Program-made: the position numbers and the translations under genes
Source of the DNA: Panicum virgatum
Taxonomy: Eukaryota; Streptophyta; Magnoliopsida; Poales; Poaceae
Assembly: GCF_016808335.1 (NCBI RefSeq)
Contig: NC_053137.1
Span: 11,086,506-11,150,505, forward strand
Length of the DNA: 64,000 bases
Reading direction: 5' to 3'
Notes under the pieces: generated by a model
Database searches by the model: none
Told to the model about the DNA's origin: nothing
The model's input: only the letters and a program-made list of their open reading frames with translations
Shown: piece by piece, positions 17,699 to 39,003 of the stretch
Layout: each line of letters begins with the position of its first letter
How positions within the stretch are numbered: position 1 is the first letter of the stretch

Positions 17699-18498
17699 TC
17701 ATGGACGATTTCTGCAACTTGTTCCTTTATTTGCTTTTGCTTTGTCGTCCTTGGCGGCGCCATCGTCCTTGGCGTTCCTCAGAGCCACAACGAGACCCTC
17801 GAGGCACGCGGCGGCATCCCTCTTCTCGGTGCGTATCAGGTGCTCGGCAACATCCGCCGGAGACATGTCGACCTCCGCCAGCAGCTTCTGTATCTCGCCG
17901 AACAGGTGGAAGAACTGGCTCTCGTTCAATATGTTTGTGTCCAGGTAGTTGCGGGCCAGCAGCTGGAATGCCTCGTAGCGGCAGTAAGGACATCTCGATG
18001 TGCTTGTCCATCCTGCCTCGCCGGATCAGCGCCGGGTCCAGATTGTCCTTGTTGTTGGTGGTGAAGATGATGATGCGCTCGCCGCCGCATGCCGACCATA
18101 GCCCGTCAATGAAGTTGAGCAGCCCGGAGAGAGTGAGCTTGGTGTCCTCGTCGTCCTTGTCATCCTCCTTCGGCGGCAAGGTCGTGTTGCTGCTCTCGCC
18201 GCCGGACCTGTTGTGGGGCTTGTTGTCGCTGCGCTTTGTGGTAAGGTGGACGGAGCGGTCAATGTCCTCGATGACGATGATTGACTTGTCCGTCGTCAGG
18301 ACGAAGAGCTTCCGCAGCTCGGTGTTGTTCTTGACGGCCATGAGCTCCAGGTCATAGACATCGTATTCAAGATGCTTGGCTATGGCGGCGATCATGGTGG
18401 ACTTGCCGGTGCCTGGGGGCCCGAACAGCAGGTAGCCTCGCTTCCATGCCCTGCCGATCCTGGTGTAGTAGTCCTTCCCCTGCTTGAAGGCGTCGAGG
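17699..18498 (-). pseudogene. BCS1-like AAA-ATPase, catalytic C-terminal part (3' half of split gene)
   Basis: The minus strand encodes the AAA+ domain of the plant BCS1/HSR4-like family: Walker A GPPGTGKST (about 18405-18431), Walker B IIVIEDIDRS, a low-complexity acidic insert, sensor region IIIFTTNNKDNLDPALIRRG, and then the family's C-terminal helical part ending at 17699. These are membrane-anchored ATPases, often mitochondrial, and some respond to pathogens. A one-base insertion near 17984-17990, directly after DKHIEMS, shifts the frame. The remaining family residues (QFFHLFGEIQKLLAEV) continue in the next frame. The N-terminal part lies 19.6 kb away at 38113-38771, separated by the large MULE. 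Its first base here, at 18498, is inside the 11-bp target duplication. Confidence 0.92.
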
Positions 18499-18536
18499 CC
18501 AAATGTTTTGGTGTCCTATGGCGGACGTACCCACCC
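18499..18536 (+). repeat. Left terminal inverted repeat of the giant MULE
   Basis: It contains GGTGTCCTATGGCGGACG followed by TACCCA, matching the inverse of the right end with a two-base difference in the middle. The preceding 11 bases (18488-18498) are the left target duplication. Confidence 0.8.
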
Positions 18537-18954
18537 CCATCGACGGTCAGGCATTTGTCATTTAGATTCGCGCCGACGTTTGAGGTGACGGAAGAATAGC
18601 CAACGTTTGATGCCTCGCGCGCAGGAAGTCAAACTGGGCAAGCGGGCCGGCAACTCGTTTTCACATTGGCTGTTCTCACCGAACAGGTTTTAAAAGAATT
18701 ACTTTATTATTTTTTTTAAAAAAAGTCTATAATCGAGGCTTAGCCTGCAAGCGTTCAGCTTCGTACAGGCGAGGATAAGGATACGAGACCAGCACTGTTT
18801 TGTAGCTCGATTTATACGAGTTATTTCCTTGCGGTCTCCTCGTTAGAGCAATCCCCATGGATTGCGATGCGTCCAGTTAAACTCGCCCTTGCTTAACCCA
18901 GGTTTCACCAGTCGCCCTCGCTTAACCCAGGTTTCACCAGAACAAGAGGGAATC

Positions 18955-21934
18955 ATGAATATAGATCTAGATTTGGGAGTAGCAGAGATGATTCGGGACA
19001 AATTTGTGGGAGTTGATTCAGGTCAGATTGAAGGAAATGGACAGGAGGGTGGAGAAGCTGGAGCAGAGGAAGTTGAGCTTGCATTGGAGGCTGGTAATGT
19101 GATCACCGAGCGACGGATAGGTTGGACGAGGTTAGTACATCTACATCGTTTCAAATTTCGGAACTTCGTTTTTTTTGCTCGATCGTTTGTTATATTCACC
19201 ATCCAAATTTCGTTGGTCTTGTAGGAAATCAGCTAGGGAAGGCCCGTCCGAGCGGATTGCTGTAAACGAGGAGAGTGCGATTACAAGGGCACTGAGCCAA
19301 GCAGCTAGGAATCGAGGATCTCCAATTTTCCAACCTCTGGAGGGTACATTATTCAGTAGTAGCGAAGAGGCGAGAGATTTCTTTAATCTTTATTCATGGG
19401 AGATTGGGTTTGGAATTCGTTATGGTCGTAGCAACAAGAATAATAAAGGGTACACAACCAGGCAAGATATTGTTTGTTCTTGTGAGGTTAGTGTCGATTC
19501 AGCTCTCTTTTTTTCGCTCTCTTTTATTTTCCCTCCTTGTTGCTGGTGTTATATTATTGTTAATCATTCGTTGTATGTTTCTAAATCATAAATAATTAAG
19601 CGTTGGGACAAATTTGTCAGGGATCACCGCGAACCAAGAATTGTGCGTCTATCAGGACTGGATGTAAAGTTATGATAAGGCTGCTGAGAACAAGTGATCA
19701 TGGGTGGTACATTAGTCGAGTTAGCACAAGCCACAACCACAAATTATCAGAGGGGTATGCAGAGAAGAAACAGTGGAATTCTCACAGCATGATTGATCCG
19801 AGCACTAAGTATTTCATCAAGAAACTTCGAGACAACAATGTCAGTATTGGAAGGGTTTGCAGCATTATTGGTGTCACAGATAGTAGTGCTATGAATCCAG
19901 TTCGTAAAGAGACCATCAGATCACTCTGCGCGAAGGTAGCAAGGGAAAATATGGCTGATGACATTGGTAAAACTGTCCAACTTTTACGGGAAATGAAAAT
20001 CAAAGATCCACTTATGGAAGTGAGGTTCAAGGTTGATGAGAAGGGCACAGTTAAATCTATGCTTTGGTGTACTGGAAAGAATAGGATGGATTACAAGAAC
20101 TTCGGTGATGTTGTCACATTTGATACAACCTATCGTACCAATTTGTACAGCTTGCCGTTTGGAATTTTTATCGGTGTTAATTGCCATTTTCAGTCAATTA
20201 TTTTTGGTGGCGTTCTTTTGTCTACTGAGACAGCAGAAGACTTCCAATGGGCATTTCAAAATTTCATCGAGATGATGGATGGATCAGTTCCAATAACTGT
20301 GCTGACAGGTGAGTTAAGTTCACACAAGTAGGGGGGCCTAATTGCATAATTTTGATGCATTTTTCTGTATGAAAGTATGTTGTATGTAGTACTATGTGAC
20401 TTTTTTCTAGTGGTTTAGTTTGAGTTTTTTTTAGCCCGTTGCTTTTTCTGGCTTGAATGATGTGTAGATCAATGCGCGGCAATGGGAAAGGCAATTCGTA
20501 CTGTTTTGCCTGGGACACGTCATCGATGGTGTCGTTGGCATGTCTTGAAGAGTGCTAAGAAGAAGTTAGGGAAAGTTATTGCGAGACACAAGCAATTCAA
20601 AAGTGATTTCTATAATCTCATCACCAACGAGACATGTGTTGATAGTTTTGAATTGTCGTGGAAGAAGTTGATCATAAAGTACCGGCTTGTGAAGAGCAAG
20701 TATATGCTAAGACTTTACAAGCATAGGGAAAAATGGGCCAAACCATACTTTATGAGTGTTTTTTGTGCTGGGATGACGAGCACGCAAAGGAGTGAAAGTG
20801 CAAATCACATGCTTAAGAGGTATATTCAGAAGGCTGCGCCTATGCACCTGTTTGTAAGCAAGTTCAATGAGTTCCTTTGTGATCGGACAGAGCAAGAGGC
20901 TCGGGAGCAACATGTAACAAAAATGGTAAGTAAATGGTGTATCCCTTTTATCATTCTCCATTGTTATTAGGCAAATGTATCCATCTTTTTTCGTTTTGGA
21001 CTTTTTCTGAATTGATTAATATACATTGTTCAGGTTACAAGGAGAATGAGGGTAGGGGCTCCGATTGAAGAGCATGCCGATTTAGTGTATACTCGTGCAA
21101 TGTATGAGAAATTTTATGATGAGTTATTCGAGGCTGGGAAGTTTTGTGTTCAGAGGGAAGATGGCAATGACAGGTTCATTGTTTCCTCTGCGAAGTTGAG
21201 CTCAGATGGTGTACAAAAAAAATATGTTGTTACTCTGCACGGAGAGGATTTCATGTCTTGCCAGTGTGGTCTGTATGAGCATCTAGGTATGCTGTGCCGG
21301 CATGCTCTAAAGGTAATATGATTTACTCCTTTTTTGTGTGCTTAAGTACATTGTACTTTGCTGCAATTATTAATGGGAGAGTTATTTTTCGCTCGTTGAT
21401 ATATACGTGTGTTTGTATAATCTTTCCCCTATTTTTCTGTTCCAGGTTTTGTTACATTTGGATAGGCAAGAAATTCCAAAGTTTAATATAATGAGAAGAT
21501 GGACAAAGGAGGCGGTTGTTTACAAAGCTCATGGAGAACAAACTGATATAGCTTCAGATGCAGACCAAATGAGGAAGAAGGCTTTGATGTTGCAGACTCT
21601 TCAAATTGTGCATGGACCTTCACCGGTGGATGAGCAGATGTTCAGGAATGCTATGGAAGCGTTGAGGCCCGCTGACCGAACGCAGCGGGAGGATCCACCA
21701 TTTGATGGACAGTATCAGTGTAGTTTGCATGATGATGCTGGGCCGGTGCCTTTATCGTGCCCTCCAAGGACAATGAAGGGTGGTCGACCTCCTAGCACTG
21801 GGCTTAATGCTTGGATATCGAGGAAAGACAAGAGAAGGACTCTTGACTCTTCACTGAGGGATCCAATTTCCGAAGATTGGCCAGAGGAAGAGATGCCTCC
21901 TAGCAAGAAGACCCGGTGCTTAAAAGATATCTGA
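18955..21934 (+). CDS. FAR1-type MULE transposase (six exons, 783 aa)
   Basis: Exons read as 18955-19130, 19225-19486, 19621-20308, 20468-20925, 21034-21312 and 21446-21934. All junctions are GT-AG and the phases are consistent, giving an uninterrupted 783-residue protein. An N-terminal acidic region is followed by a FAR1 DNA-binding domain (about residues 106-200, with EARDFFNLYSWEIGFGIRYG). The MULE transposase core has Asp314 (FDTTY), Asp376 (TDQC) and Glu485 (QRSESAN), fitting the DDE triad. A SWIM zinc finger (CQCGLYEHLGMLCRH) starts at residue 604. The C-terminus is basic (PPSKKTRC). FAR1/FHY3 regulators derive from such transposases, so a domesticated FAR1-related gene is an alternative. 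Its position just inside the left end, intact catalytic residues and flanking target duplication favour an active-type transposase. The upstream in-frame ATG at 18862 is possible but less likely. Confidence 0.92.
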
Positions 21935-22426
21935 ATGTTTCTTGACCAATCACAGTATCATTGATGCCAACAAATGTTTACATTGGAAGTATGTCTGGTG
22001 GCAGTACATTGGTGTCTAAAATAAATAGTTTGCGCATTTTATTCGATGATGCTCATCATAAACCTAGTTTATGAACAAAATGTAGCACGGATTAATATTA
22101 TGCCGTCCGATGTCTAATACTGCTGTAATATATTCTTAAGTTGCATTGTTCAATTGTCGTTGGTGTAATCAACAATCCCCTGATTGACATGATGTCGCTG
22201 CACTGATGTTTTTACTGGATGTCTGTTCGGCTCCTCTTGGAAGCTGACTTAATTTGTGGGCTTGGGGTAGTGTCATACTTTGCTGCGTCCATAGGCTGTG
22301 GAGATGGTGTCATCAGTTGGTCAACTGCATTAATTTGAAAACATTAGCATCAGTGATTCCAACATTATTTCTGTTCCAAGATGGCATTTTGATGCATTAG
22401 CAGACCGTTCAATTGGTCTCCATTTG

Positions 22427-24141
22427 TTAACCTTCCTTCAGGTTGCTGGGCGGTTGGTGGGGTAACATCAAATTGTATTTGGAAAGCCCTGATGTAGTGT
22501 TGTGAAGATGGAGTCTCTGTATCTGCAATATTTTTTTAAGCGAAACCAAGTTAGTGTGTGTGAAATTCAAATATTTACAATACATGATTGCTGAATATGT
22601 TGTTCAAAAGATTGGTATTTGCTTTGTTTAGAATAATGCACATGGGTTTTCTCGCCTCTAAGCAACTGTGTAACAGCGTTTCCTGAGGGCCTTGGATGTT
22701 GCATAACTGATGTTGCTGAGAAAAGCTCGGCTGCATTCATCTGGTTATTTCCAGCGACAGAGTTCCTTGCAGCATTGACAAAATTTTGGAATGTTAGGAC
22801 CGATTTGTAATACAATATGTCAATGGTAATGTGATATCAAGGTTTATAGGTTTGTACCTGATTTGATTGAATGGAATGTTGTCAGCAGTGTCCCCAGTTT
22901 GTTCATTCATTTTTGAGGTGGCTGTACCTGTAGTGTTTGTGTGAATTGGGTGTTGCTCAGTGGCAGGGAATTTCTGCATATGTGTAGCTATAGTCATAAA
23001 TATGTTTTCATTATTTTTTTTTTACCATATAGCTGACAAAAAAGTTTGGAAAATGTAATCTACATGGTTATGTACAGCAGTTTGTTATATTTACCATATG
23101 TTGTGTACAACGGTGAAATAAAGTTTGATCTTCCATATGCTTTATCTGCTGTATTGATAAGTTGGACCAAAATGTAGCTGCTTCTGATGGTAATTTCCGG
23201 AAAGAAGAGTGATTGAAGTAGCACCAACGCATGAATACCAACTGTTGTTTGGCACATGGAAATTGAGTTAGATTTTATATGGTTTATAAGTGCAGAACTG
23301 GTGTTTTTATTTGGAACTAGGTACTTACGTTGAGTAAGGGAAGGCATCCATCCAAGTAAATGGTTGAAGTTCCAGTATCTTGCCGGAGTTGCTCTTGCAG
23401 GGATTTCGATGCTGACATTAATCTTTCTACTGTAAATCCTGCCCAGTCTAAAGCACCTTTGTATTTTCTATCTGACAAAGCAAGCATAACTGTAGGGGGG
23501 AGTGCAGGCATTGATGCTGGGTTTGTCACAGGTGCCAAGAATGTGGATACGGTATACATGATTAAGGAAATAGTGAATGCTCTTTCTTCCGGTTCAGACA
23601 ATTGCTCAACGCTGTGAAGTGATAATAGTACAGCGCGTGCTCTAGCTAAAGTGTTTGATGATTTTGCGTAGCCAATCGACATTGCTTTTGCAAGGTTCTT
23701 AGTATCTAACTTTTGCGAACAGTGCACTGTTCTAGTGACAGGTAAGTTTCCTGAAGGCAAGCCTAATACTGACAATGCTTCATTTGCGCCTATTGGAATC
23801 TCTATACCTGGTTCGATGCATATAGTTGATCGATCGTAGTTTATCGATGACAGCAGCCATGCAGACAAAACCCTATTCGGATCATACTTCAGTGGTGCAT
23901 CCGAAAGAAACCCAAGTCCGATTTGTTCGGTCAGTATTTTCTGCTTGCTCTTGAACCCCGGCAATATTTGAGCAAGCAGCAGAGGTCGGTTCTTGGGGCT
24001 GCAGAATTTGCCTTGTATTGATCCTCTAATGTTGTGGGGGATGCTGTGCGATGCTGCTTCTTGACGGAGGGAAGTAATCATTGGGGGTTGCATGCCGAAG
24101 TTGCTAGCCGCTTGTATCTGATAGAAATCGAAGTTCCGCAT
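22427..24141 (-). CDS. PMD-like protein, short paralogue (five exons, 431 aa)
   Basis: On the minus strand exons read 24141-23329, 23241-23095, 22973-22858, 22765-22642 and 22522-22427. All introns are GT-AG with matching phases and no stops. The first exon carries the same arrangement as residues 30-270 of the 826-aa cargo protein: a helical segment with an LG(L/I)P(S/C)G turn, a charged stretch, an SLIMYTVSTFLAP-type helix, then DWAGFTVERL corresponding to DWSEYVIRKL. This resembles the plant mobile domain (PMD) or aminotransferase-like region found with Ulp1 proteases in grass transposons. The rest is short, polar and without a protease domain. The start is uncertain: ATG 24141 is used, but an upstream exon near 24240-24416 is possible. 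Role unknown; a transposition accessory function is inference. Confidence 0.7.
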
Positions 24142-24889
24142 TAGTTTGGCTGCTTTGTACTTAGGAAATGCAAGCTGCGAAGGAGGAGTATTGCGGTGTG
24201 TATTTCATTTGATTCAGATTTTATAGCGACCATACCTTGGCTCGGGTGGATTTTTCTTGAAGTATGTACTGCCTTTTCTGTCCCCTTTTCGAAGCTTTGT
24301 TGACTTGGACAATACATCCTGATGTTTATATAGCGTGCGGCTATCGTGATTGCCGTCTGCGGCACGCAACCACTGGCCTTTCTTGTGGTCGAAGGTATAA
24401 GAAAGTGCTTACCCATTAAGAAAGTTGGCCCAGGTTTTTGTTAAATTTCTTTCTGATTTTGGGCGTGGCCAGGCCCCCACACTCGGTATAAATTCCTCTA
24501 TTGTTTTATAATCCCTATCGTTTGCTATGATCTCTTTGCGTTGTATTTTGTAACGGATAAAATATGCATATATCAAGCGCCCAAAGGTTTTATGGGTGGA
24601 TTGTACATGAGAGAGTAGAGACAAGCTAGCATGAACTGAAAGTTCGAATATATAATACATTGTTTTCAGCTGGAAATACGGTCTTAGGTACGGGAATTGT
24701 AACGGTTACATCAGATAAAGCATCGAATTACATGAGAATTTGTGGGGGGTGGGGGGGGTGGGGGTGTGGGGGGGGGGGGGGGTAACACTACAGTGATAGT
24801 TCTTAAGTTCATAATTAGATATATTGCTGACGACGAAGAGTCTTTCCAATTTTTCTCTCCGTCTGATCTTCTGATCTCTTCCAGCTGGT
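24142..24889. other. Intergenic stretch with a G-run
   Basis: This is the upstream region of the PMD-like short gene. 24745-24782 is a nearly pure G tract (runs of 6 to 14 G). A minus-strand open frame at 24142-24416 may hold a leader exon of the neighbouring gene, since it includes a TATAAAA-like string and a possible splice donor near 24235. Nothing else is recognised. Confidence 0.4.
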
Positions 24890-26442
24890 TCAGTTTTCCT
24901 GGTAAGCTTTGATCTGTAGAATCCGGTATAATATTACGTTACACTTGTGTTTTGAACTAAACATTGAAGCCAGGTTTACATAATGAACACAGTTTACAAA
25001 ATTTCAAAAGCATGAGTTGTAAAATTATCATATATATATGTAAATTACATAGTAACTTTAGTTAGACAGATAGTTTCATTTAAGAGATTATGTTATTTTG
25101 TTTTGGTGGGGGCAGTATTAGCTAACCTGGAAAGCCAGAAGGTCGGCATATGCACTGTCAACGTTCACCTTGTCACCATCAAGTGTCCTGACTAGATCTC
25201 CAATTAATGGCCCTGGACCCTCTGCTGAACTGAGAACTGCTTCGGTGATACCCAAAGATTGCATGAGTGAGCCCAATCCAGAAAATGAAACATTGGTTGC
25301 ATCCATTATCTTCATCCCAGTTGCTTTTACTACTTCAACCTCTTGCTCTACACTCGCTATCTTGTTCTCCATGTGTGCAAGCATGTCATATGTCAAATCT
25401 CGTATAGTTAAGTTCGCAGCTGCTTCAATATGTGTGAGTGTTTTCACCATCACATTGACCCTGGCGGCATATTGTGTTTCTGCAGGTTCACCAAGAATTG
25501 TCACCCCAGAATAACTGAGTCTAAGGATTGATTGGAAAGTTGTTTGCCCAATTTGGTGGGTCTGGACGGTTGGAACTCTGCCATTCACAGTCCGCATGAC
25601 CCGTTCAAATATGAACTTTATTATGAAAAATGAGGCATCCTTGTCAAACTGCATCGAAAAAATATTAGGGTGAAATAGTAAGGGCCATTACGAAAGTTTC
25701 TGGGATGCAATGTGTCCAGTGAATAATTGCTTTTGCTGTTTGCGAAATCTATTGCCCAATATGATGAAATGCATGACATGTTTGTTGGAAATTATTCAAG
25801 TTCTTTGAGATGTGCATGACAGGATGTTGTTTTCGATTTGTCCAGATTACTTGCCTGTGGCACGGTCATGCCGTGGAGGAAGGAACCAGCGTCTGAAGTG
25901 ATGGTTGGAGGTGCTATGATATTAGCAATGGTATCTTCTGCTTCACGGAATGCTGCTGCTGTCGGGTACACTATAGCCCCAAGATCATCAAACCATTTGG
26001 TTCCTAGTTGAGGAGCAGCAGAAGAGTTTGTCAAAATTCCAATAAGTGTGCGACGGTATGCATTTCCTGCATCACGTAAGCTTCTATATTTGTTTAAAGC
26101 AGCTTGCAGCTGTGATCTGGCATGCATGAATGGTCCATTCTTCATAATCATTTTGGTGTAGCTGAAATCTCCGATGTATCTACCAAAGGCAGCACGAATT
26201 GCTACAATGCTGCTGATCAGGGTTCCGTTAAAGCTCAGCATTGTGTCATTTGAAGCTTCACCGGACACAACTAATTTAGTTGTGTCATTATCATCGTCTG
26301 GCTGCTTCTTCTGAAAGCAGATCTCGAACATGGTGCCATTGCTGCCTTGTTTGTTTTCATAAATCTCCAGGCTTCCTTCACCAACTCCTCCAAATATCGG
26401 CCCCATCATTTCAAGCCCCGTGAAGAACTCAGTGGTGTTCAT
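24890..26442 (-). CDS. Unrecognised cargo protein (three coding exons, 372 aa)
   Basis: Minus-strand exons are 26442-25855, 25648-25127 and a tiny last exon 24898-24890 (two codons and a stop). Phases agree and the frame is uninterrupted. The first intron begins GC (CAG|GCAAGT), a strong GC-AG donor; the second is GT-AG. An acceptor-like CAG immediately precedes the ATG, so a spliced leader exon is likely, possibly near 27350-27580 (GC-rich, donor-like CCGAG|GTAACG). The protein has no motif I know. It seems mixed alpha/beta in the first half (GVGEGSLEIYENK, FEICFQKKQPDDD) and helical later, with a possible short coiled coil (HMENKIASVEQEVEVVKAT). No signal peptide or membrane segment is seen. 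Its preservation alongside the transposase suggests selection, which is inference. Confidence 0.6.
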
Positions 26443-28457
26443 GCTGCCTGTATCATTTTCAAATCAGGTTATGCAAATTAGAGCTTTTTTTGCAATTAAT
26501 AATCGTTGTTATCAGTAATTGGAGGCTCAATATGTACCTCATATATTAAGGCACATACTGTCTTTTTTATTCGCAATTCTAACCATTATGGTATATGATG
26601 TGTTATGAAACTGTAATAAATCATCTATGCGACTATGAAAATTTAGTAATATCAAACACATATATAAATTACAGTCATTTGTCTTTAATAGGTAATAATG
26701 TCATGTAAACCCCCAGTGTTCATGTAAAATTGGCACTTTTGCCATTATCAAATAATATTATCTAACCTATTAGATTTATATATCCATCATCGAATTGTAA
26801 CATCATTAAAAAGGCTAAAATTAATGTCAAGTATTATCAAAAGTATATTGTTATAGTAATTGTTATTTTGAGCCATGGAGAAGCTTCGCAGCTGATGTAG
26901 CTCATGTTTAGTTCGAAACAAATTTATCACGCCCAAGCTCGTTTGTTCGAAACAAACTATACTCGAACAGGGTCTTCTTTTTTGTCTTAGGTGGACTGGG
27001 TAGTTTTTCTGCGTGCTTTGCATAAGGGCTCGCACTTGTTGTAGCACAAAGTGTGGATTTTGTATGGGTGGGGGGTGCTCGGGATGGGGGACTGTGGTTT
27101 TGGCTTATTCAGTCGCCTGAAAGTGAACCTGCTATCAATCTCCAACCTTTTTTGTCTAAACTTTACCGTGCACCGCCTTTTCTTTTTTGCGTCGCTTTCC
27201 TTAATCATCTACTGCGCTGTTGGACCACAAGAAAATGGAGCACACTTTTTACAATTGGGACGTTGGGACCGAAGAATCCTAACAAAGGCGCTAAACATTT
27301 TGTAAATGCCAAAGTGGAAGCTGTGCTGCACCAGGATAGAGTCGTTACCTCGGCGGGGGAGCTTTGGCCGCTCTCGAATATTTTCGGGCTGATCCTGCTG
27401 CTGATGTGCTCCGGAAGTAGTCGAGGCGGAGGAGATAAGGTTTGCTGTAGCGCGATGGCTTGTGGCGGGCGAAGGGGGGGGGATGAGTCCTGGGGCCGAA
27501 GGGGTCAGCTTGGCGGGGGCAAGATGGTTCTGGATGAAAGCGGATAAGGTTGTGGGTGCTAACAGTGCACACACGTTCATTCACAAGTCCTCTATATATT
27601 TACCTCAGCTCACAGATACAGGCATGATCAAGGCGAGTGGAATGGCTAGCGGCGTCGGAGAGTCTTGCCGGACACAGCGTGCCGCGGTCGAGCCTCGTGG
27701 CATGCGTTTTGTTTAGTCTTTTTTTCTTTGTTGCTCGTCTTTTACTTTCAGTTTTGAAATTTGGTCAGCTGTATTTTGGGTACGTATTTAAATTAATTAG
27801 TATGTTATTATTTGTGTTACTAGTTAAATCTTTTTGTAGGTGGAGTCTTAATTTTGTTAGTTGGTCGCTAACAAAGATTATTTACCTTGAATTTGCGTCA
27901 ATGTAGTGTTGGTATTCCCTAGTTTATGTTTACGATAAATGGGGCTGCTTGGCTTAAAATTAAACGTTTCTCAGCCCTCTTCAAGTCTGTGGCTTTTAAT
28001 AAACGAATCAATTTTTATGGAACGCAAATGGAGTCATCAGCATATGCAGTTTTGAGTGTTCAATCAACATAAGCCTTATCATCACATGCAATCAGGAAAA
28101 TAGGAATATATATATACATATATATATATATACATATATATATGTATATATATACATATATATATATGTGGTTGCTGTTGCTCGCACAGTACACAGTTTT
28201 TTTAAATAGATACATGACAGTTCTGATACTCAAGGATACATAGTTATGGCCTTTTTAGTAGCTAGGGTGCTAATAGGCCGCTGGAATTCAGACGAAATAA
28301 CATAAACTACCCATTACGGACTAGTCTTTTTTGCTTACTTCCTGACATTAGCCAATTCAGAGTTGCATAAGATAGATACTCCCACGAAATACATACGGAG
28401 CTTGTACACGCGAGCTCGATAGTATAGTATTTCATGGTACTCATTGGATCTTGTCTC
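26443..28457. other. Region between the unknown gene and the two-B3 gene
   Basis: 26443-27200 is AT-rich with no gene. 27200-27580 is GC-richer and holds a minus-strand open frame with a donor-like end, a candidate leader exon for the gene ending at 24890. 27600-28100 is AT-rich. 28107-28170 is an alternating TATATA/TACATA palindrome that could extrude a cruciform. Nothing else is recognised. Confidence 0.45.
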
Positions 28458-30169
28458 TCAAACAATTGGGAGACGGAAGACACGGACCAAGAGGCGACCC
28501 AGGTAGAGACGGATGGAAAGCACCACTAAGTCTCCCAGTTGGAAGCCGTAGTGCTTCACAAAATCCTTCCACCCAGGTCCACTGATCAGAGCAAGTCCTG
28601 TGTTGCCAGTTCTCTTCCTCAGTGTAGCAGCAAACAGATGGTCGTCTGCTGGGTGCGACAGGGTGACAATCTTGTGTCCAGTTGGAAGCGTGTTGGAGAA
28701 GTTTGTGGTGAAATACTGTCAAAAATAAATTGAGTCAGCGGATATTGTCATTAAAAAAACTAAGAGAGACTTAACTATCAAATAAATTATGTTGGTTGGG
28801 AGTGGGGGCACTTACAAAGGTCCCACCGTTAACGTGGCTGTGGTTCAGCTTGCATGCGTACAGTGGGAAGTGAGTCTCAAAATTGATCCAGACATCGCTC
28901 AGAGCTTGCATCAGTGGACCAGTCATCATCAGCTTTGGGCCAAGCTCGTATTGCATGCCAAGCAAGTGCTCAGGCACTATTGATATGTAACCATCAGCAA
29001 AAGCACCTAGTTAGTTTTATGTGTAACATTGTCAGGAAATGTGGTTCATTGTGGTGTAAAGTTAAGTAACTACAACGTTTATTAAGCAGTGTCAGGTAAT
29101 CAATTAATGGACTGTAAGACGGGAAGGCTTACCAGCATATAGATTCACATCATCCTGAGCTGGTGGTGGGTTAGGATGCCCATCCTCCTCTCCATAAGCA
29201 ACGAATAAATTCCAAGCTGGGGGACGTGCTGACATCGGTTTCTCGTTGCCATTGCTATCAAATAGCTTCATCTCTAGGGTGTGGGGTGCAGAAAGCACGA
29301 ACAGACCATAGTCCCCGCTCACTATCTTCTCTGATTCAACAAACAAACTCCACCCAGTTGACAAGCGAATGCAGTTACCAACAATTTCAACTCCAACTTG
29401 AAACACTAGGGGTGACGCTCCTCGTACATGAACAGCAGGCAGTACGTCCATGACCAAGTCACTTCCAAACCCTTCAGGGCAGTCCTGAAAGGTTTTTATT
29501 TTATAGTTAGTCTTGGTGTGTTTTGGGGAAAGCTTGGAGACAGCAAAAGAATTGAGTAAATCATAGGTTTTTTTGTATTTTTGGGTTTGCACTAAATAGT
29601 TGAATGTAAAAATGTATGAAGAAGGGAAACTGACTGTCTTTTTTGACACTTACAAGATGGTTGATGAATAGCGCATCAAAGTGCTTCAGGAACGAACGTC
29701 CTGTCCCGATTGCCTCGAACGGGTTCATGGCTCCAAACACATTGCTCTTCAAGTCAATGGGAACCTTTTACCAGAAACAAGAAAATGATGCGTGCTTAAT
29801 GGTATATCAGATGCTTAGTGATAACCACAGTTTGTTTCAATAATCTAAATGTGGATCTGTGTGCATGCAGGTCTGATTTGCTGCTCAAAAGAGGTTACCT
29901 GAGGCTGTGCGGTTGACGAGCTGGACCCTAGCATGCTGGTCCAAAAGTTGTTTATTCCAAGACCGTATGCTCCCTCCACTGGCGCAACATGTTGTGCTGC
30001 GTTGGCAGTTTGCTCCGCAGATAGAACCGTCAGTGGTCCATTGTCCCTCGCCAGTGGGATCTCGTTTGTCTGCAATAAAGTAGCAAGCGACATCAGAATG
30101 TTCAGAATCTTCCAACCACATCGAAATCACACTACGCTGTCATGGATTTTAGTAACGTACCCGTGCCAT
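28458..30169 (-). CDS. Protein with two B3-like DNA-binding domains (six exons, 353 aa)
   Basis: Minus-strand exons are 30169-30161, 30069-29899, 29764-29654, 29484-29133, 28976-28816 and 28715-28458. All are GT-AG, phases agree and no stop occurs. Residues about 90-190 form a B3-like fold: a start strand in the FLKHFDALF region, then GNCIRLSTGWSLFVE and GDYGLFVLS, matching the GW..F...L..GD..F core. Residues about 225-350 repeat it (KLNHSHVNGGTFYF, PGWKDFVKHYG, GDLVVLSI). B3 domains are plant-specific DNA-binding domains, as in the REM and ARF families; paired B3 domains are typical of REM-like proteins. ATG 30169 gives the natural frame through exon 2. A GC-rich frame further upstream (from 30434) would join out of phase. 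Possible roles include binding the element's own ends or regulating cargo, both inference. Confidence 0.72.
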
Positions 30170-31907
30170 GACGGCGGGCAGCAGAAGACGCAGCTGTGGG
30201 TGCGACTGCTTCGTGACCACGGGATTCCAAAAACGTAGCCAAAGCATAAGCGAGAGCAGCATCCAGGCACACGGCCGGCGGGCTATCGGCTCCAGCTGGC
30301 GCTGCCGCGCCACTACTAGCCTGCAAGCTCCCCGGTGATGCAGATCCAGTCGAGGCGGACGGACGGCGACGCGGAACCTTGGAAGCTGGGCCCGTCTGCC
30401 CCACGCTGGGGCTAGCACGCACACGCCGCACCATGGATCCAGCTCGGGAACACAAGAGTGGGTGCACTGTACCCCGACGTGGACTGGACGGGAGGCTTCG
30501 CCGTGTGTACAGTAGCGGAGCTCCCCGGGGGGAGGAGGGGTGAAGAGGATGGATAGGGTTGCTACTGGTGCTGCTCGATGCTTCCGGATGGGGGGGTCCA
30601 GGTTATTTTATATTGTTCAATCCGGTCGCTTTTGGTCCGCGTTCTGAGCTCGCACGTGACAGAGCACAAGCGCTGCATTCATTTTTTCTTCATCTGTTCG
30701 CTCTTTCCCTCCCGCCATCTCGATTCTTCTGAAATTTTGCCGCGTTCAGTTACGAAACAATTCGAATTCTGCCGAGGCGCTACGGAATCATCAATTTTTT
30801 GGCGCCAAACAATGGGTTGTAAGTAAATTGATACTGTTTTATTTGTTAGAACCATTCTTGGGAGAGGGAGATTTTATTTGTTCCAACCATTGTTCGGAGA
30901 GGGGGGTTTGGTGTCGAACGGGGGTTTGGAGATGCAGTCTCTATGGTTCCAGTAGCCAAAGTTAATTTATTACCCTCCATTATAGATATGAATGTAGTGG
31001 TCTTCGATGATTCGGTAGATTGTTTATTTTCTTAAATTATGTGCTTCAATGCTTGCCTATTTTTTTCTTTCCAGCTGTAGTGTCAATTGATCTTTTTTTC
31101 TTAAATATACTGTGCTTATAATTACACAATCAAAGTTAGGTCTTTGTATTTCAGTTTTTATAGTCTTCGTTATTACCTAATTTTAAATTTTATACAGCGT
31201 GACAACTAAATAATAATTATGTTTAGTACATTATTTATAATAAATTCATTAATTTATCGAAATTCTTTTATTTCTGTTTCATTAAATTCAAGCTATCATG
31301 TAACCATTTTTTTATGTCGTGCTACTAACAATATTTGCGTTTAAATAGTATGAATATTTAGCTGTATCATTTAGCAGCCCGAGTGCAGTGACTGAGTCCA
31401 TTGGGTATTTTTGTTCGTACTCTTGCTTTGCAAGCTTCTGAACTATTAAAGAGGTTGGCGAAGGGTTGGTCGGACTGAGTCTTGCCGAGGAAGGAGCTAG
31501 TTTACTTGCCGGTGGAGGAAAAAGGACGAGCATTAAACTCATATACCTGCACACCTATACCATTTTAAATGCCTTGGCGCTCCGTGTCGCAGAAGGAAGC
31601 GAGTTGATTTGGGCCGAGCACCTCGGCTTCTTTTTTTTTCGTCCCGCACATGTTGTATTTTTTCTTTAGCGCGCCAATATGAATTTGCCGTCATTACATT
31701 TTTTGTTACGTAGCACTTTTACTTGTAAATTATAACATTTTTTTTGGTTTTCACACTGGGGCCCGTCGATTATTGTTGAGGTTATCTTTTTGCTATATTT
31801 CTTGTTTACCAAGCAACATCATCTTTATATAGCCGACCCCATTCCGCCGCACACTAGTTTCACAGTGCACGGTGCGACTTTACTTGTGTTCCTTTTCTTG
31901 TAATAGC
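30170..31907. other. Divergent region between the B3 gene and the RPA32-like gene
   Basis: 30170-30560 is GC-rich and is probably the leader or promoter of the minus-strand B3 gene, with open frames due to composition. 30560-31310 is AT-rich. A minus-strand open frame at 31312-31554 has no recognisable family and no matching exon neighbours. 31830-31840 (TATATAG) may be the TATA box of the RPA32-like gene. It should hold both divergent promoters. Confidence 0.45.
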
Positions 31908-33452
31908 ATGTCCAACCATAACAGCACAGCACGGTCTACTGCCCATCTGCTGAGCCCAACACTTGGAATCAACACAAATATAAACAAAATGCACGTGACA
32001 GTTAAGCAGATTGTTGAAGGTTCGCAGAAACCTAGGTATAAAGGAAGGATAGTTGTTAACAATAGTCAGGTTTACACGGTGAGTAGTTCAGGAGCTTCAA
32101 TATTTTTGGTGATCTATTTTCATAGTATGAAATAGGTCTATATTCAATCGGGTTAGTTCATTCGCAAATCACACTTTTAAATATCAATAAGAATGATTTG
32201 CCTGCAGGTGCAATTATGTGGCATGATGTGCCATTTGGACCACGAGGAATCTTATTGTGATTACAAATTATTTGATGGCACTGGTGAAATCAAAGGAAGG
32301 GACTGGTAAGGGTCTGCGTAACAGGCAAAACATACATGTAGTTCTTCAAAAATAATATTATGAGTTTATACAGCTCGTTTTTCACAAAAAATACTTAACG
32401 ATACTGATTTAATTTTGCTGTCAGGAGAGACTGCATGTCGGGCAATACCTTCTTCAGCGGTGGGAGGTATGGTTGGCATCTGCAAACGAAATTTGGTTGT
32501 GCCATTTTAGATGAACTGTGTACTAAGCATTTGCAGTATAATAGGGCTGTAGTCGTTAACAGGCAATTTATTTATTTATATTTGCAGTATGGGTGGATGC
32601 TAATGCATGTTTTTTTATGCAGCCTGTCAGCATATTATGTTGTTCATGCTACTGTTATCGTTGAGAGGGATTCTGCCTGCCTGAGCACATTGCATGCTAG
32701 GCAATAATTCTCTTTGTCGTCTCTTATCTATTTTTCTTGTAGTGCTATTTAGGTTATACTTGTATAATGTGCATGTAATGTGGTTCAATCAATACACAGG
32801 AAGGTGGAGGACCACAATGAATTGACGCACCATTTCCTTAATTGTGTCACTAACCACATTGAGCTGATAAGAAGCAAGAAGCGTGATTTTGAATTACGGA
32901 TGACTTCATACCATGTGGCTGCTGAACTTGATAAAGAAGGTCTAATATGCTTGTTGGCAAATGATTCTGTCAGGTTTGTTATTCTCAGTCCATATATCCT
33001 TATAATTCCTTTTTTGTTAATGATTCCACCCACTGAGACAATGTATGTTTTTTATGTTTAATAGGAAGTCTGAGGTAGGAGTGACCTATGATTTTCTACT
33101 CGGTCACATGCATATGGAAGAAAGCAAGCTCAGGTTATCATACAGTATTTAGTTTTTGAACAATCCTTTGGTGGTAATTATATTTTTCTATATCCAGCTC
33201 CCCCCCCCTACCGTCCAACATACAAACGGTCATTTGCCTTATAAATGTACCATCAAAGTGTACTGGAGTTTTGTTGTAATTCCAAAAATTATGTGTAGAC
33301 ATATCTCCTTTTTTCCTTTTTTTTAAACTGTCTGTTTATTTCTACTCACGAGCAAGTTGTAATATCACAGGGCTGCACTGAAGGAACTCATTGATGAGGG
33401 TAGTATCTACAATACTGTTGATGATTACCATTTCAAGTTGGCTGAAAACTAG
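31908..33452 (+). CDS. RPA32-like (replication protein A subunit 2) cargo protein, seven exons, 237 aa
   Basis: Exons are 31908-32078, 32208-32305, 32425-32466, 32623-32700, 32800-32973, 33065-33133 and 33371-33452. All phases agree and the frame is open. Residues 27-100 match the entry into the RPA2 OB fold (KMHVTVKQIVEGSQ, then KLFDGTGEIKGRDW, equivalent to the LDDGTG.I core), followed by a YYVVHATVIVE strand and the helix HNELTHHFLNCVTNHIE. Residues 200-237 (HMEESKLRAALKELIDEGSI, VDDYHF) match the RPA_C winged helix. RPA2 is normally 270-290 residues and binds single-stranded DNA as part of the RPA trimer. This one is shorter, chiefly lacking the phosphorylated N-terminus. Intron 4 begins GC instead of GT (after 32700), which is needed to keep the frame. 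It may have been captured from the host, then kept for replication or repair of the element (inference). Confidence 0.85.
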
Positions 33453-33692
33453 AGATGGGAGGGTACCTGGAGAGTTTTTTACTTCATATTTATCTTTTTC
33501 ATGTACTCTTCCCTTACAGCTTCAGGTTGAGGAATAAATTTAAGTGCTGATGTTGAATGTGGTCACTATGAACTTAGTTTATATTTTTCTGGCAGCCCAA
33601 GTGTTTGTAATGTTATAAACATTTTTATATTTCATGTTAATATGTTACAACTTAATGGCTGCTTGAGAGGAAGATTAGCAGTATTAGTACCT

Positions 33693-36600
33693 TTATGTTG
33701 TGGGCACGAACCCCTGGTTTTCTTTTAAGCCTAGTGCGTCAGTGAGCATTTCTGCAACCTTTGATGCATCTGCTACCTGCATAAGTTTCTCTCTCACCAG
33801 TTATACAAGTGACAGGGGGTGTAAAGAGTAGTCAGCTTTGTGTTTTACAATGCAGATGCAAACTAACTTACATTTACTCTTGAAAGTGAAGAAAGCGTTC
33901 CATTATAGTGAAAGCAGAATTGGGCAGCAGCGCAACCTGTGCTCCTATTCCTGAAATCAATATGACATCGAGATTTAATTAAATTTTGACATATGCGCCT
34001 GCACCAGTCCCGCAATTCTGTTGTCATGCAATATGGATAATATCCATTCATGCAAGCATAACCTACCAGGTGCTTCCGGCAAATTGGGTGCCTATTATTT
34101 CTATTCTTGCTGCTTCCCAGTTGTAATTCCAGCCAGTTATCAAATGACTTGCTGTCAATTTCATGGCATTTTTAATCAGTCCAATGACGTATATGTGTAC
34201 ATCCTTGTGTTCCTCAATGCAATTTTCATTGAAAAAAGGGTCAAATACAGATATTATGTTTCTATCAAGACACCATGCGTATGTCACCCATCGGTGCCCA
34301 ACAATTCCTGGGAAGAATAGCTGCTTCCAAAAAAAGAGATGAAATGAAGTTTGTGTTAACTTATTTTTTATCTACAACAGCAATTTGATGTCTGCAGAAA
34401 TGAAGTTTGTTTTGTTTTTTCTTACTATTCTGCACGATGGCAGTTCATATTCTATATGCAGCGCAGATATCTGATCTTTAATCACTTGGCTTGTTGCGTT
34501 GAATGTGCCTGCAAGCAAAGTCCCCTGTTTCAAAACATAAACTTTATTATTATTCACTGTCATTACTATTGTGCTTTGTTTTTAGTAATGGAGTGACGCA
34601 ATTAATGATAGTATCCTCAACTTACAATAAATATTGATTCAAATATGTGTCGCTGGATATAGCCTTCCACACATTCACCTCCACTCTTAGTTACCTCTGT
34701 GAATCGCCTAATTATTGCATCGAACATGTCCATAACTATTTCAGATCTGCCAGTCAGTTGTGTCTGGAATGAATTGTACGGGACCTCGATGTGTTTTGGG
34801 GTATAGTGCAGGATCACAGGGCTGTTGTTGCAACAAATGACACATTGTCAGATTGACCAAAATCAAAATATATTTAGTGTTGCCTGTTTGCATGGCAACT
34901 TTCTGTTACGATAACAAGTGGACTATCTATGTGTACACCTAGAATTACATCTTAACTGAAAAACGATTTCATTTAAATATTGGCACACATGTAGTATTCC
35001 GGCATTATCATTGACAAGTATGTGGGGGGGGGGGGGAGGTGGAGGGGGGGTCACACATACCACTGCGGTGTATAATTTGATTGAGTTGAAGCATTTCTCG
35101 TTGAAGCTGCTGATTCCTCTCTAAACCCACTGTTGTTCAGATGATGGTGGTTGCATTGTTGGCATGTTATACATGTTTTGTGTAGACAGTTGCGTCGGTT
35201 CATGCAGCACAGAGAAATATAATACCTTGCCAGGGCACGGATTGCAAGAGCCTTCTTGAAGGTCTCATATGAGGTTACTCTGTCACACTCATCAGTTGGA
35301 CCATACAACTCGATACATATGTATCCATTTGTAGCTGATGTATGAGTGAATCTTTCTTCACTAGTTTGTCCAGATATGGTTAAGCTGTTTGGTCCACGTG
35401 GCCGCTTGCGGCAGTTGCAATCTTGAATAGATGCACTACCAGTTGCATCGTTGTGCTCCGAGCTTCCATCTTCAAAAGCAAATCCTCGTCTCTGCCAATT
35501 GCAGCACACAAATAATGACGCTTCGTCCAGCATCCTGCTCACATCCGCTCCTATTGTAGTACCTGCAACAATTTATAGTGTACTGCATTTTTCGGCCAAA
35601 TCCCTTAATTTTTAAAATTTTGCAAGGTAATGCCTTGTTTTTTCTATTTGCAAGGTTAATTATTTTTCTCGCATAATGCCATTGACCGCTAATGTACGGA
35701 AAGGTTGTTTTTTTACCTAGCCACGCCATGTTGATGTCTCTCCCTGCATCGTAGCAGTATCCATTTGTGAATGGCTCGATTATTTTCGTTAGCACCGATG
35801 CAATGCTCCCTGCATGGTTAGCCTCGTGTCTGCTGCTCATCATTTCGAACTCAGCAACGGCGAAGAATAGTGCTCCCGCAGCCTGTTTTTGTAAATATAT
35901 TGTAAATGCGTTATTTTTTTTATTGGTGCGGCAATTTATACAATACGACGTGTGAAAACTGTTGCTTTTTACCTTCATATGAACGCCAAGTGCTCGTGAA
36001 AAAGAGACTGAAATTTCCCATAGGCCCGGCAAACTGCTGCCAATACCTCCACAGCAAGCACTGAATGATTCATATGCCCATGAGTAACATATGCCAGAGG
36101 CGTTGCGAAGCTGCAGGTTACAATAGCAGATAAGCATTTGTTTGAGTGATTTTGCTATTCTTACGATATTCTTTATCATAAGTTTGCTCTTTCTTTCTCT
36201 CAGGTCAAGTAAATAGTGTATAGATACCATTGCGAACATATCTTTGGAAAGTATATTCTATTTTTTTTGCGTGCTTACCTGACTCTTGCCGAACTCAAAA
36301 TCTGAACTGCCACCACTTCTGCATAAACTGTCTGCTAGGACCATAGACTTAATTGTCTCCGCGGAGAAACTGCTAATGCGGGGGAATGTCGAATGCTCCA
36401 TGTTCATCACTCCAACATCAATACTGTCTAGGTAAAGTACCTGAAGGTTGGTTCATTGTGTTTATTAGCATAAGACATGGCATGTGATATTCTTTAGTTC
36501 TGCTCTATTTTGGGGGGGAGGGGGGGGTATTGTGGTATTACTTGCAAGAAAATTGAGCAGCCTGTTATGTTTGAAACTCTGTTGCTTACTTGGAGTTCAG

Positions 36601-37500
36601 TCTTCAGCTTTACTACTGCTTGGAAAAGTTTCCTTATTACATACTCTGACCAATCAAATTTCCCAATGCTACATGGCTCTACAAGAGCACTCCAGTAGTC
36701 GACGGACACGTAGTTGTACTTGGACCCGGGGGATAATAATGTTGACATTATATATATGACAAATGCAACTTTGAATGCAGCCTGTTCAGCTTCTGTCATC
36801 TTGTTGTTATATTTCCTCTCTACAACTTCCTGCGCCGTTTTTATGCTTCGACTTTGCCTACTATCTTCTCCTAGGTACACGGTTGTAACTTTTGAAATTA
36901 TATCTCTACGTGCCATCCCGGTCTCAGATATTATGCTACCACTACATGGTATTCCAAACACTCTCTCCACATCTGTTTTTCCAAACTTTATTTTTTTCTT
37001 TGAGTCAATTACCAGTGTTTGGGTTAGTGGATCTACTCTGCTCATAAGCCAAACTGCAAATCTGCGGTTTATTTGTCGTAGAGATGGGAACAACAGCATT
37101 CCACCAAATCCAATTGACTTAACCAATTCCCGTTTAAATTCATCCAAAGATGATATGACATCATATATTTGTTTAATTGATGTCCGGGTCGATGAAACCA
37201 TGTAATCATCCCTTGGATCGTTGTTTCCTACTTGTTGCGAACCAGAGATGCAGTTTCCTGAAGGGAATAGCTGACAGGTAGTTTTTAAACAATTATGTCA
37301 GCAACATGACAATTTGTCCTGTATACGTTTTAGTTATTTTTCATTTAGTTCATCAATAAGAAGGATGCTAAGCTATCTGAATAGTGGCAATAATGTAATC
37401 TAGTTTGCGTAGAATAACCAACCTCTAGTACTTCGCGGGCTGCATCAGGAACAGAACTGCGCGCAGTAGATCCGGTAGTGATTGCCTTTCCTCTCCTCAT
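33693..37500 (-). CDS. PMD-like domain fused to a C48/Ulp1-type cysteine protease (11 exons, 826 aa)
   Basis: Minus-strand exons are 37500-37423, 37270-36542, 36440-36279, 36110-35973, 35882-35717, 35562-35061, 34821-34626, 34524-34426, 34320-34067, 33950-33878 and 33776-33693. All introns are GT-AG, all phases agree and no stop occurs. The start MRRGKAITTG is followed by a PMD-like region (to about residue 270, with FGIPCSG and AFVIYIMSTLLSPG). Residues about 590-800 resemble the Ulp1/C48 peptidase core: GHRWVTYAW (His699), VFDPFF (Asp717) and NRSTGCAAAQFC (Cys781), in the catalytic order H-D-C. Ulp1 proteases remove SUMO from proteins. Ulp1-like genes are known in plant MULEs (Kaonashi type), and PMD proteins have transposon origins. 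A host desumoylase paralogue is the alternative, but location inside the element argues against it. Confidence 0.85.
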
Positions 37501-38073
37501 TGTTAGTTAAATCCCGCAAGCAGATGGTTTCCAGAAGCTGGGAGCCACCTCTTCCAGGCTCGAATGTTCAAAATGATGAGCCCCTGATGCTGTTGCTTTC
37601 TTCGGTTAACCACTAGCTAGGAGAGGCGTTTGGGTGGAGGGGGAGTGGGGGGTTTGGTTGGGGGGGGCGCCTAGCCAAGCTCGTGGGTCAACTGCGGCGT
37701 AGAAGATTTTGCTGGTTGTGATCGGAGGAATGGGGGGTGGTGAGGGGCCTTTGCGTGCGGGGGTTCGGTATGGCTGCTGGGGTGTTCGTGGCTTGGGGTT
37801 GGGGGCTTGGGCGGCGGCGGCGGCCTGGCGATGTAGCGGGGCAGGGTCAATTGCGTAGGGGGAACAAGCGATTTCGAGAAGATGTACAGTATCCACCCGT
37901 GTTTGCCTTTTCAGTTCCTTTTATTCGCAATAAACGCATTGGTGTGAACGGGGGGTGCTTGCAGGTGGTTCTGTGAACTGGCTTGCCTACACCGCGGTGA
38001 CGCCGTAGACTAACGGCTGTTTGCGCACGAATCGCGACCAGCACCGAACTTGCTGGTTGACGGTCACGATTTG
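37501..38073. other. Right subterminal region of the giant MULE
   Basis: GC-rich promoter-like region of the PMD/C48 gene, followed by the subterminal part of the element. Open frames on both strands at 37606-37980 come from G-rich composition and are not supported as genes. Confidence 0.5.
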
Positions 38074-38112
38074 CTATGGGTACCTACGCCATAGGACACC
38101 AAATCCTCGTTG
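38074..38112 (-). repeat. Right terminal inverted repeat of the giant MULE
   Basis: The plus strand reads TGGGTACCTACGCCATAGG (about 38077-38095), then ACACC, the inverse of the left end. The next 11 bases (38113-38123) are the right target duplication AGGCGTCGAGG. Confidence 0.8.
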
Positions 38113-38771
38113 AGGCGTCGAGGTCATCGACGATGGCCTCCTTCTCGGCGGGGTCCATGGCGAGCGTCGCAAACGTGGCCGGGAGCTGGAACGCTACGGG
38201 GCTCCAGAAAGTCCCCCCTCTCTTTGGGATGTTGGTGAAGAGGCGATGCTTGCGGTTCTTGGCGATGACGGCGCGGCCCTTTTCAATGACTTGGGGCAGA
38301 TAGGAGCCGAGGATGGGGTCGCGGAATTTTTTTGTGGAAGACAAGTCGGTAGAAGCGGCGCTTTTCATCGGCCGGGTTGTGGATGATGATCTGGGACTTT
38401 GGGTACTCTGTATAGGCATACCACCAGAGCTTGGTGCCGACGTCGTGGAAGGTGTCGACGATCTCCTGGTCGTCGTCAATGGCGGCCTGGGGTTTCTTGC
38501 TGTCCCTGCCAAGCTCGGCCTTGAGCTTGCGCGCCCCGTGGATGCAGTACTCAGAGAGGTAGGCCTCAACAGCGACGAAGAAGTCTCGGTCTCTGCTTTG
38601 GGAAGGATCGGCGCCGTACTCTGGGATGGTGATTTGGATGTATGAGCTGAAGTAGGCGGCAATCTTCTTCAGCCACAATTTGATCCTCTTGCGGTTCATT
38701 GCCGCAGCAACAAGGCCGAGCAAGAACACCAGAGCTGATCCAAGGCCAGCCCACAACTCCGTGGACGCCAT
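38113..38771 (-). pseudogene. BCS1-like AAA-ATPase, N-terminal part (5' half of split gene)
   Basis: The ATG at 38771 is followed by a single membrane segment (ALVFLLGLVAAAM, about residues 13-25) and the AAA-associated N-terminal domain of the plant BCS1/HSR4-like family (AYFSSYIQITIPEYG, AVEAYLSEYC). A T run at 38327-38333 (A run on the coding strand) is one base too long and shifts the frame after FYRLVFHKK. The family sequence then continues in the next frame (FRDPILGSYLPQVIEKGRAV, then DPAEKEAIVDDLDA). The gene is broken here by the giant MULE, with the Walker A part at 17699-18498. The homopolymer indel could be a sequencing error, but the insertion alone inactivates the gene. Confidence 0.92.
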
Positions 38772-38917
38772 GGTGGGCTGGCTAGCTTAGCTTGGCTTGC
38801 AATGCTAGGGTGTTAATTTGGAAGGAAGCTAGCTAAGCTTTTGACTGGTTAGACCGAACAAAGCCAGCGAGCTCGCCGTGGCTTAGTCCTATGGAATCTG
38901 GGATGACCTATGTCAAG

Positions 38918-39000: not shown

Positions 39001-39003
<3 letters not shown>

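What the first reader, a model, noticed from the sequence alone, without database searches (positions are those of the whole stretch)
18499..38112. Giant (19.6 kb) FAR1-type MULE carrying six intact genes, inserted in an AAA-ATPase gene
Seen: 11-bp direct repeats, inverted ends sharing GGTGTCCTATGGCG, and exact continuity of the host reading frame once the insert and one repeat copy are removed. Six multi-exon genes inside splice to open frames, while the split host gene and the adjacent MuDR element are decayed. Known: MULEs make 9-11 bp duplications and can carry gene pieces or Ulp1-like genes. Inference: this is a self-contained mobile unit whose cargo (protease, OB-fold protein, B3 protein, PMD-like proteins) may aid its transposition or counter host control. 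The combination is, to my knowledge, undescribed.
Basis: partly seen in the sequence, partly recalled or inferred. Interest (0 to 1): 0.93.

Follow-up and report, generated by a model that had tools for sequence, protein, structure and literature searches.

The report
Giant multi-gene plant jumping gene
A 19.6-thousand-base jumping gene in what looks like switchgrass carries its own mover enzyme plus at least four further genes, among them a relative of a known plant anti-silencing protein and a relative of a DNA-repair protein, which makes it a richer and larger version of a known kind of mobile element.

Summary
An 11-bp direct repeat, inverted ends (27 nt, 93%) and an exactly restored AAA-ATPase frame mark one 19,614-bp insertion, 18499-38112. 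It is a FAR1-type MULE with an intact transposase model; no nested element stood out inside. The 'OB-fold protein' is an RPA32 paralog: one annotated switchgrass protein differs at 6 of 201 residues, and another is encoded piece for piece by this window. The 'protease' gene belongs to a family whose Sorghum member is predicted to fold as a domain like VANC21 (the Arabidopsis VANDAL anti-silencing protein) plus an Ulp1 fold. Ser or Thr stands where the catalytic Cys belongs in the ten relatives that reach the site and in this copy. A second gene is homologous to the VANC/PMD-like domain, a B3 gene is supported, and a sixth gene is only an open frame. ULP genes in Jittery-like MULEs and 12-18 kb MULEs are published for grapevine, so this is a new variant. 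A second whole copy could not be sought, because the genome tool did not complete. Likely mechanism: cut-and-paste transposition aided by VANC-like anti-silencing; the RPA32 role is speculative.

The parts
18488..18498 (.). left copy of the 11-bp direct repeat (target-site duplication, 9-11 bp)
38113..38123 (.). right copy of the 11-bp direct repeat
18499..18533 (+). left terminal inverted repeat (core 18507-18533)
38077..38112 (-). right terminal inverted repeat (core 38077-38103)
18955..21934 (+). FAR1-MULE-SWIM transposase, 6-exon model, 783 aa, open; D314, D376, E485 and C-x2-H motif present (roles of the residues recalled)
   Evidence: (MULE 2.6e-25, FAR1 1e-13, SWIM 1.3e-4)
23317..24141 (-). 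second gene homologous to the VANC/PMD-like domain, single-exon model 274 aa, no Ulp1 part found downstream
   Evidence: tblastn down to 4.5e-19; profile E 3.9e-21 among 1,997 window ORFs; no Pfam hit by itself
25118..26442 (-). open two-exon model of 372 aa (GC donor), no homolog found; identity unknown
   Evidence: none; pLDDT 38; ORF length against null
28458..30093 (-). B3-domain gene, 5-exon model, 368 aa, two B3 stretches; 5' end uncertain
   Evidence: B3 3.7e-8, 2 stretches
31908..33452 (+). RPA32-like gene, 6-exon model, 228 aa, OB-fold region plus C-terminal RPA_C domain
   Evidence: PDB RPA32 chain 9.1e-7; RPA_C 1.2e-6, above cut-off
33863..37500 (-). VANC/PMD-like domain plus degenerate Ulp1-like gene, 10-exon model, 762 aa, all introns GT-AG
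17699..18498 (-). 3' part of the split host AAA-ATPase gene
38113..38786 (-). 5' part of the split host AAA-ATPase gene

Best explanation
The stretch 18499-38112 is one long FAR1/Jittery-like Mutator-like element, probably autonomous or recently so, that jumped into an AAA-ATPase gene of a Panicum genome. Shown: ends, duplication, restored host frame, intact transposase model, open accessory genes. Inferred: the transposase, read inward from the left end, binds the ends and moves the element by cut and paste. The VANC/PMD-like plus Ulp1-like protein, read inward from the right end, binds element DNA and counters silencing as VANC does for VANDAL elements. Its Ulp1 domain, without the usual catalytic Cys, acts as a binding (perhaps SUMO-binding) module rather than a protease. 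The second VANC/PMD-like protein and the B3 protein act as further element-directed DNA binders. The RPA32 paralog joins or competes with the host single-strand-binding complex during repair of the excision gap. The single-insertion part is about 0.9 likely; VANC-like anti-silencing about 0.45; the RPA role about 0.2.
Against: No second full copy was seen. The RPA copies could be inherited homeologs rather than transposed copies. No over-represented short motif was found in the element's 11,235 noncoding bases, although VANC targets are clustered motifs. The VANC21 match is mostly helical and only just above the range where the tool warns of chance arrangements; it is for a relative, not the window protein; and no sequence search reached VANC21. 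The DUF1985 and PMD scores are below Pfam cut-offs. The window copy has another Cys two residues after the Thr (STGC), so loss of activity is not proven. The outermost 8-9 bp of the ends differ. At a laxer 12 of 16 matches, 7 internal pairs appear (null mean 4.6, maximum 10). No expression data.
Confidence: 0.55

Rival explanations
1. A shorter FAR1-MULE inserted first, and the RPA32, B3 and VANC-like genes came in by later nested insertions or rearrangements, so the six genes are not one mobile unit.
For: Large size. Two homologous VANC/PMD-like genes, which could mark a composite. A weak inverted pair at 24937-24964/26904-26931, 79%, flanking the unknown gene. Seven internal pairs at the lax threshold of 12 of 16, which is within the null.
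Against: No internal pair at 13 or more of 16, although the scan recovers the outer ends. The gene models are open and their spans fill 61% of the element. The two outer genes are read inward from the ends, as mudrA and mudrB are in MuDR (recalled).
Confidence: 0.2
2. The cargo consists of host genes or gene copies captured in passing (Pack-MULE style) with no role for the element.
For: MULEs often capture genes; capture of PMD genes by MULEs is published (PMC5418596).
Against: All six models are open. The RPA protein is far from solved RPA32 proteins, and a word-limited protein search returned only 3 relatives among 120 candidates, which suggests an old, separate lineage rather than a fresh capture. 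ULP/DUF1985 genes recur in unrelated MULEs.
Confidence: 0.2
3. The element is dead or partly domesticated: the genes are kept because they now serve the plant, and the ends no longer move.
For: Outermost end bases differ between the two ends. Two RPA relatives are annotated in switchgrass as gene products.
Against: The transposase model with its catalytic residues is open, and the target duplication is still perfect, which suggests a fairly recent jump.
Confidence: 0.1

Closest known systems
Jittery-like MULEs with ULP sequences in melon and grapevine
   Same: Jittery-like transposase with a ULP sequence on the same element; the two multi-copy grapevine Jittery-like families are 11.9 and 14.4 kb (PMC2528002; the passages do not say which of them carries ULP)
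   Different: Here 19.6 kb, inverted ends and an 11-bp repeat are found, plus RPA32, B3 and a second VANC/PMD-like gene; a VANC fold of the ULP gene's N-terminal half is not mentioned in the passages I read
VANDAL / KAONASHI (KIU) elements of Arabidopsis: VANA, VANB, VANC and VANC-Ulp1 fusions
   Same: MULE with an anti-silencing DUF1985 protein, in some fused to an Ulp1 domain (PMC13317346; PMC5735166)
   Different: VANDALs are a group apart from the Jittery (FAR1) group, and the original ones lack TIRs or have short degenerate ones (PMC6446971); the relation here rests on fold and a weak DUF1985 score only
MUDR-clade MULEs with an antisense PMD gene
   Same: a PMD-type gene on the opposite strand to the transposase (PMC6446971 Table 1)
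   Different: that is another transposase group; the Table lists one ORF and no PMD for the plant part of group 36, which has FAR1
Plant Helitrons carrying RPA
   Same: a transposon with its own single-strand-binding protein (PMC6431247)
   Different: rolling-circle elements; here a MULE with an RPA32-type protein

Membership tests
Mutator-like element (MULE) | 8-11 bp target-site duplication | tested here: met
   11-bp exact repeat
Mutator-like element (MULE) | terminal inverted repeats | tested here: met
   27 nt at 93%; outer 8-9 bp divergent
Mutator-like element (MULE) | MULE-type DDE transposase | tested here: met
   PF10551 2.6e-25, D314/D376/E485
FAR1/Jittery-type MULE | N-terminal FAR1 domain and C-terminal SWIM zinc finger | tested here: met
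   PF03101 1e-13, PF04434 1.3e-4, both above cut-off
FAR1/Jittery-type MULE | transposase falls in the Jittery clade of a tree | not tested
VANC anti-silencing proteins | DUF1985 domain above Pfam cut-off | tested here: not met
   24.1 bits against cut-off 35.1
VANC anti-silencing proteins | VANC21 fold | tested here: met
VANC anti-silencing proteins | sequence-specific hypomethylation of its own element | not testable with these tools
   -
Ulp1/SENP cysteine protease (C48) | Ulp1 fold | tested here: met
Ulp1/SENP cysteine protease (C48) | catalytic His, Asp and Cys | tested here: not met
   window copy: His and Asp present, Thr at the Cys position with a Cys two residues later; 10 of 10 relatives judged to reach the site have Ser (7) or Thr (3); position assigned by motif
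RPA32 (RPA2) | RPA_C domain above Pfam cut-off | tested here: met
   29.6 bits against 22.6
RPA32 (RPA2) | OB region matching RPA32 chains | tested here: met
   6i52_B 1.1e-4, 4gnx_B 1.4e-3
B3 domain proteins | B3 domain above Pfam cut-off | tested here: met
   33.7 bits against 30.1, two stretches
Pack-MULE | no transposase, fragments of host genes | tested here: not met
   intact transposase model and open genes

The most novel reading that the evidence does not exclude
A self-sufficient giant MULE whose accessory genes form a working kit: two VANC-fold proteins and a B3 protein that unmask the element from silencing, and its own RPA32 that steers repair of the excision gap so that the element is copied back. 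As far as my limited searches show it would be the first cut-and-paste transposon with its own RPA subunit, and it would extend VANC-type anti-silencing to grasses and to FAR1-type MULEs.
Probability: 0.22. Interest if true: 0.87.

Novelty: new variant of a known kind. Interest (0 to 1): 0.62.

Why it matters
If the unit moves whole, plant DNA transposons can carry a multi-gene counter-defence and repair kit. The giant-transposon review calls capture of full-length host genes exceptionally rare, in Pack-MULEs as in Helitrons (PMC6431247, passage). The fold link between the grass PMD/DUF1985-Ulp1 family and VANC21 turns a poorly named grass gene family into testable anti-silencing candidates.

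Tried and rejected
Second copies in the genome: the genome search where=own was sent 20 times in the same form and never answered, so copy number is untested. A scan of viral contigs with the transposase found nothing. Single-sequence fold of the 223-residue ORF of the unknown gene: pLDDT 38, not used. Short-motif enrichment in noncoding DNA: none above null. Profile search of the PDB with alignment A1 and single search with the N-terminal domain did not find VANC21 or Ulp1. Pfam on the 13 members of A1 gave no C48 protease hit. Nested elements: a first scan (0 hits) demanded inverted ends directly beside the repeat and so also missed the outer element; I replaced it by the scan, which finds the outer element. 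B3 against the PDB: only weak auxin response factor 1 matches, E 0.41. The idea that the ULP part is an active protease was dropped.
Full report
Boundaries. The sequence AGGCGTCGAGG stands at 18488-18498 and again at 38113-38123. Between them the ends carry inverted copies of TTTGGTGTCCTATGGCG...GTACCCA: 18507-18533 against 38077-38103, 27 nt, 93%. The end-to-end alignment scores 55.5, against a maximum of 33 in 500 resamples. The end motif occurs only at these two places in the 64-kb window, with none in 100 shuffles. A scan of 18399-38212 for direct repeats of 8 bp or more with inverted 16-mers up to 12 bp inside them returns this pair (16 of 16) and nothing else at 13 or more matches; 30 resamples gave no pair at 14 and a mean of 0.37 at 13. 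In the whole window, 459 inverted 14-mer pairs lie more than 3 kb apart; those others that have a direct repeat of 9 bp or more nearby fall, by eye, in tandem ACCGGTCTG-type repeats, AT runs or the neighbouring MULE (read). Removing the insert and one repeat joins the host frame through the conserved AAA-ATPase stretch, and both host halves are recognised by Pfam. This is one insertion of 19,614 bp. The true duplication may be 9 to 11 bp. The outermost 8-9 bp of the two ends match poorly, which I cannot explain.

Organism. The database protein P0002, named replication protein A 32 kDa subunit B-like of Panicum virgatum, was cut into six pieces, and all six are found letter for letter in the window's translation. 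The window is therefore very probably switchgrass. The whole genome could not be searched (20 unanswered requests, listed under Tried and rejected).

Transposase. A 6-exon model at 18955-21934 gives 783 aa without a stop. It has FAR1 (1e-13), MULE (2.6e-25) and SWIM (1.3e-4) domains, D314, D376 and E485, and the C-x2-H motif (the roles of these residues are recalled knowledge).

RPA32 paralog. The corrected 6-exon model at 31908-33452 gives 228 aa. It scores RPA_C at 1.2e-6, above the curated cut-off, and an RPA32 chain of the PDB at 9.1e-7; 6i52_B and 4gnx_B match its OB region at 1.1e-4 and 1.4e-3. Three database proteins matched at E <= 0.001 among 120 candidates: P0001 and P0002 from switchgrass and P0003 from an unnamed ENA record. 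The search reaches only proteins that share exact words with the query, so more distant RPA32 proteins would be missed. P0001, locus tag PVAP13_5NG301955, differs from the window protein at 6 of 201 positions. Its contig has another length than P0002's longest contig (72,287,751 against 69,011,629), so there seem to be at least two loci; whether these are transposed copies or homeologs is open.

Other genes. The gene at 24141-23317 is homologous to the VANC/PMD-like domain (profile E 3.9e-21 among 1,997 window ORFs; tblastn down to 4.5e-19), with no Ulp1 part found after it; by itself it has no Pfam hit. The gene at 30093-28458 has two B3 stretches (3.7e-8, above cut-off). The gene at 26442-25118 is only an open frame: its 223-aa ORF exceeds the 95th percentile (215) of the longest ORF in 200 resamples, whose maximum was 258, and ORFs of 220 aa or more occur 0.045 times per resample. 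It found no relative, and its intron model uses a GC donor.

One unit or several. No internal pair of inverted ends with a duplication reaches 13 of 16 matches in the scan that recovers the outer ends. At 12 of 16 there are 7 internal pairs, against a null mean of 4.6 and maximum of 10. The six gene spans fill 61% of the element. The two outermost genes are read inward from the two ends. This favours one unit, but only a second copy could prove it.

Comparison with print. In the 2019 MULE survey, the plant part of the Jittery group, with FAR1, is listed with one ORF, and antisense PMD genes are listed for other plant groups (PMC6446971, passages and table). Jittery-like MULEs with ULP sequences in grapevine and melon are published, and grapevine MULEs reach 17.7 kb (PMC2528002, passages, section 8). 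Arabidopsis VANC and VANC-Ulp1 (KIU) genes are the functional precedent (PMC13317346 passages; PMC5735166 passages and abstract; PMC10398659 passages). Capture of PMD genes by MULEs, with an anti-silencing guess, is published (PMC5418596 passages). Plant Helitrons carry RPA, and capture of full-length host genes is called exceptionally rare (PMC6431247 passages). My searches for RPA or B3 genes in MULEs gave no such report (listings only, most papers not opened; the library lacks most subscription journals).

Mechanism. Shown: anatomy, open gene models, predicted fold of one relative. Inferred: cut-and-paste movement by the FAR1-type transposase; VANC-like binding of element DNA against silencing; a binding rather than cleaving Ulp1 domain; a repair role for the RPA32 paralog. 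The search for repeated short motifs that a VANC-like protein might bind was negative, which counts mildly against the VANC reading.

Verdict. The finding is real and well placed, its gene content needed correction, and it is a new variant of a known kind rather than a new kind.

Noticed in passing
39001-43608: A separate MURA-type MULE with 122-bp inverted ends (93%), beside TA repeats, with MuDR, MULE and SWIM domains in three open pieces.
   Followed up: partly
about 2.0-11.7 kb and 52.7-62.5 kb: Two LTR-retrotransposon-like copies; most listed repeat families between them are 94-99% alike, some stretches only 63-72%. Integrase- and reverse-transcriptase-like ORFs in the first (Copia type by eye).
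   Followed up: no
17699-18498 and 38113-38786: The host AAA-ATPase gene has frameshifts besides the insertion, so it may have been a pseudogene before the jump or decayed after it.
   Followed up: partly
protein P0032 (Panicum miliaceum RHOMBOID-like protein 1): Its residues 304-385 are 62% identical to the VANC/PMD-like domain of the element, a possible gene fusion or annotation error.
   Followed up: no
18499-18507 and 38104-38112: The outermost 8-9 bp of the two ends do not match well, unlike the strong core just inside.
   Followed up: no
proteins P0007, P0009-P0013, P0015, P0016, P0026, P0027: A family of grass proteins (one member unnamed) aligned to an Ulp1-fold model, with Ser or Thr at the catalytic Cys position: a likely pseudo-protease family.
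   Followed up: partly
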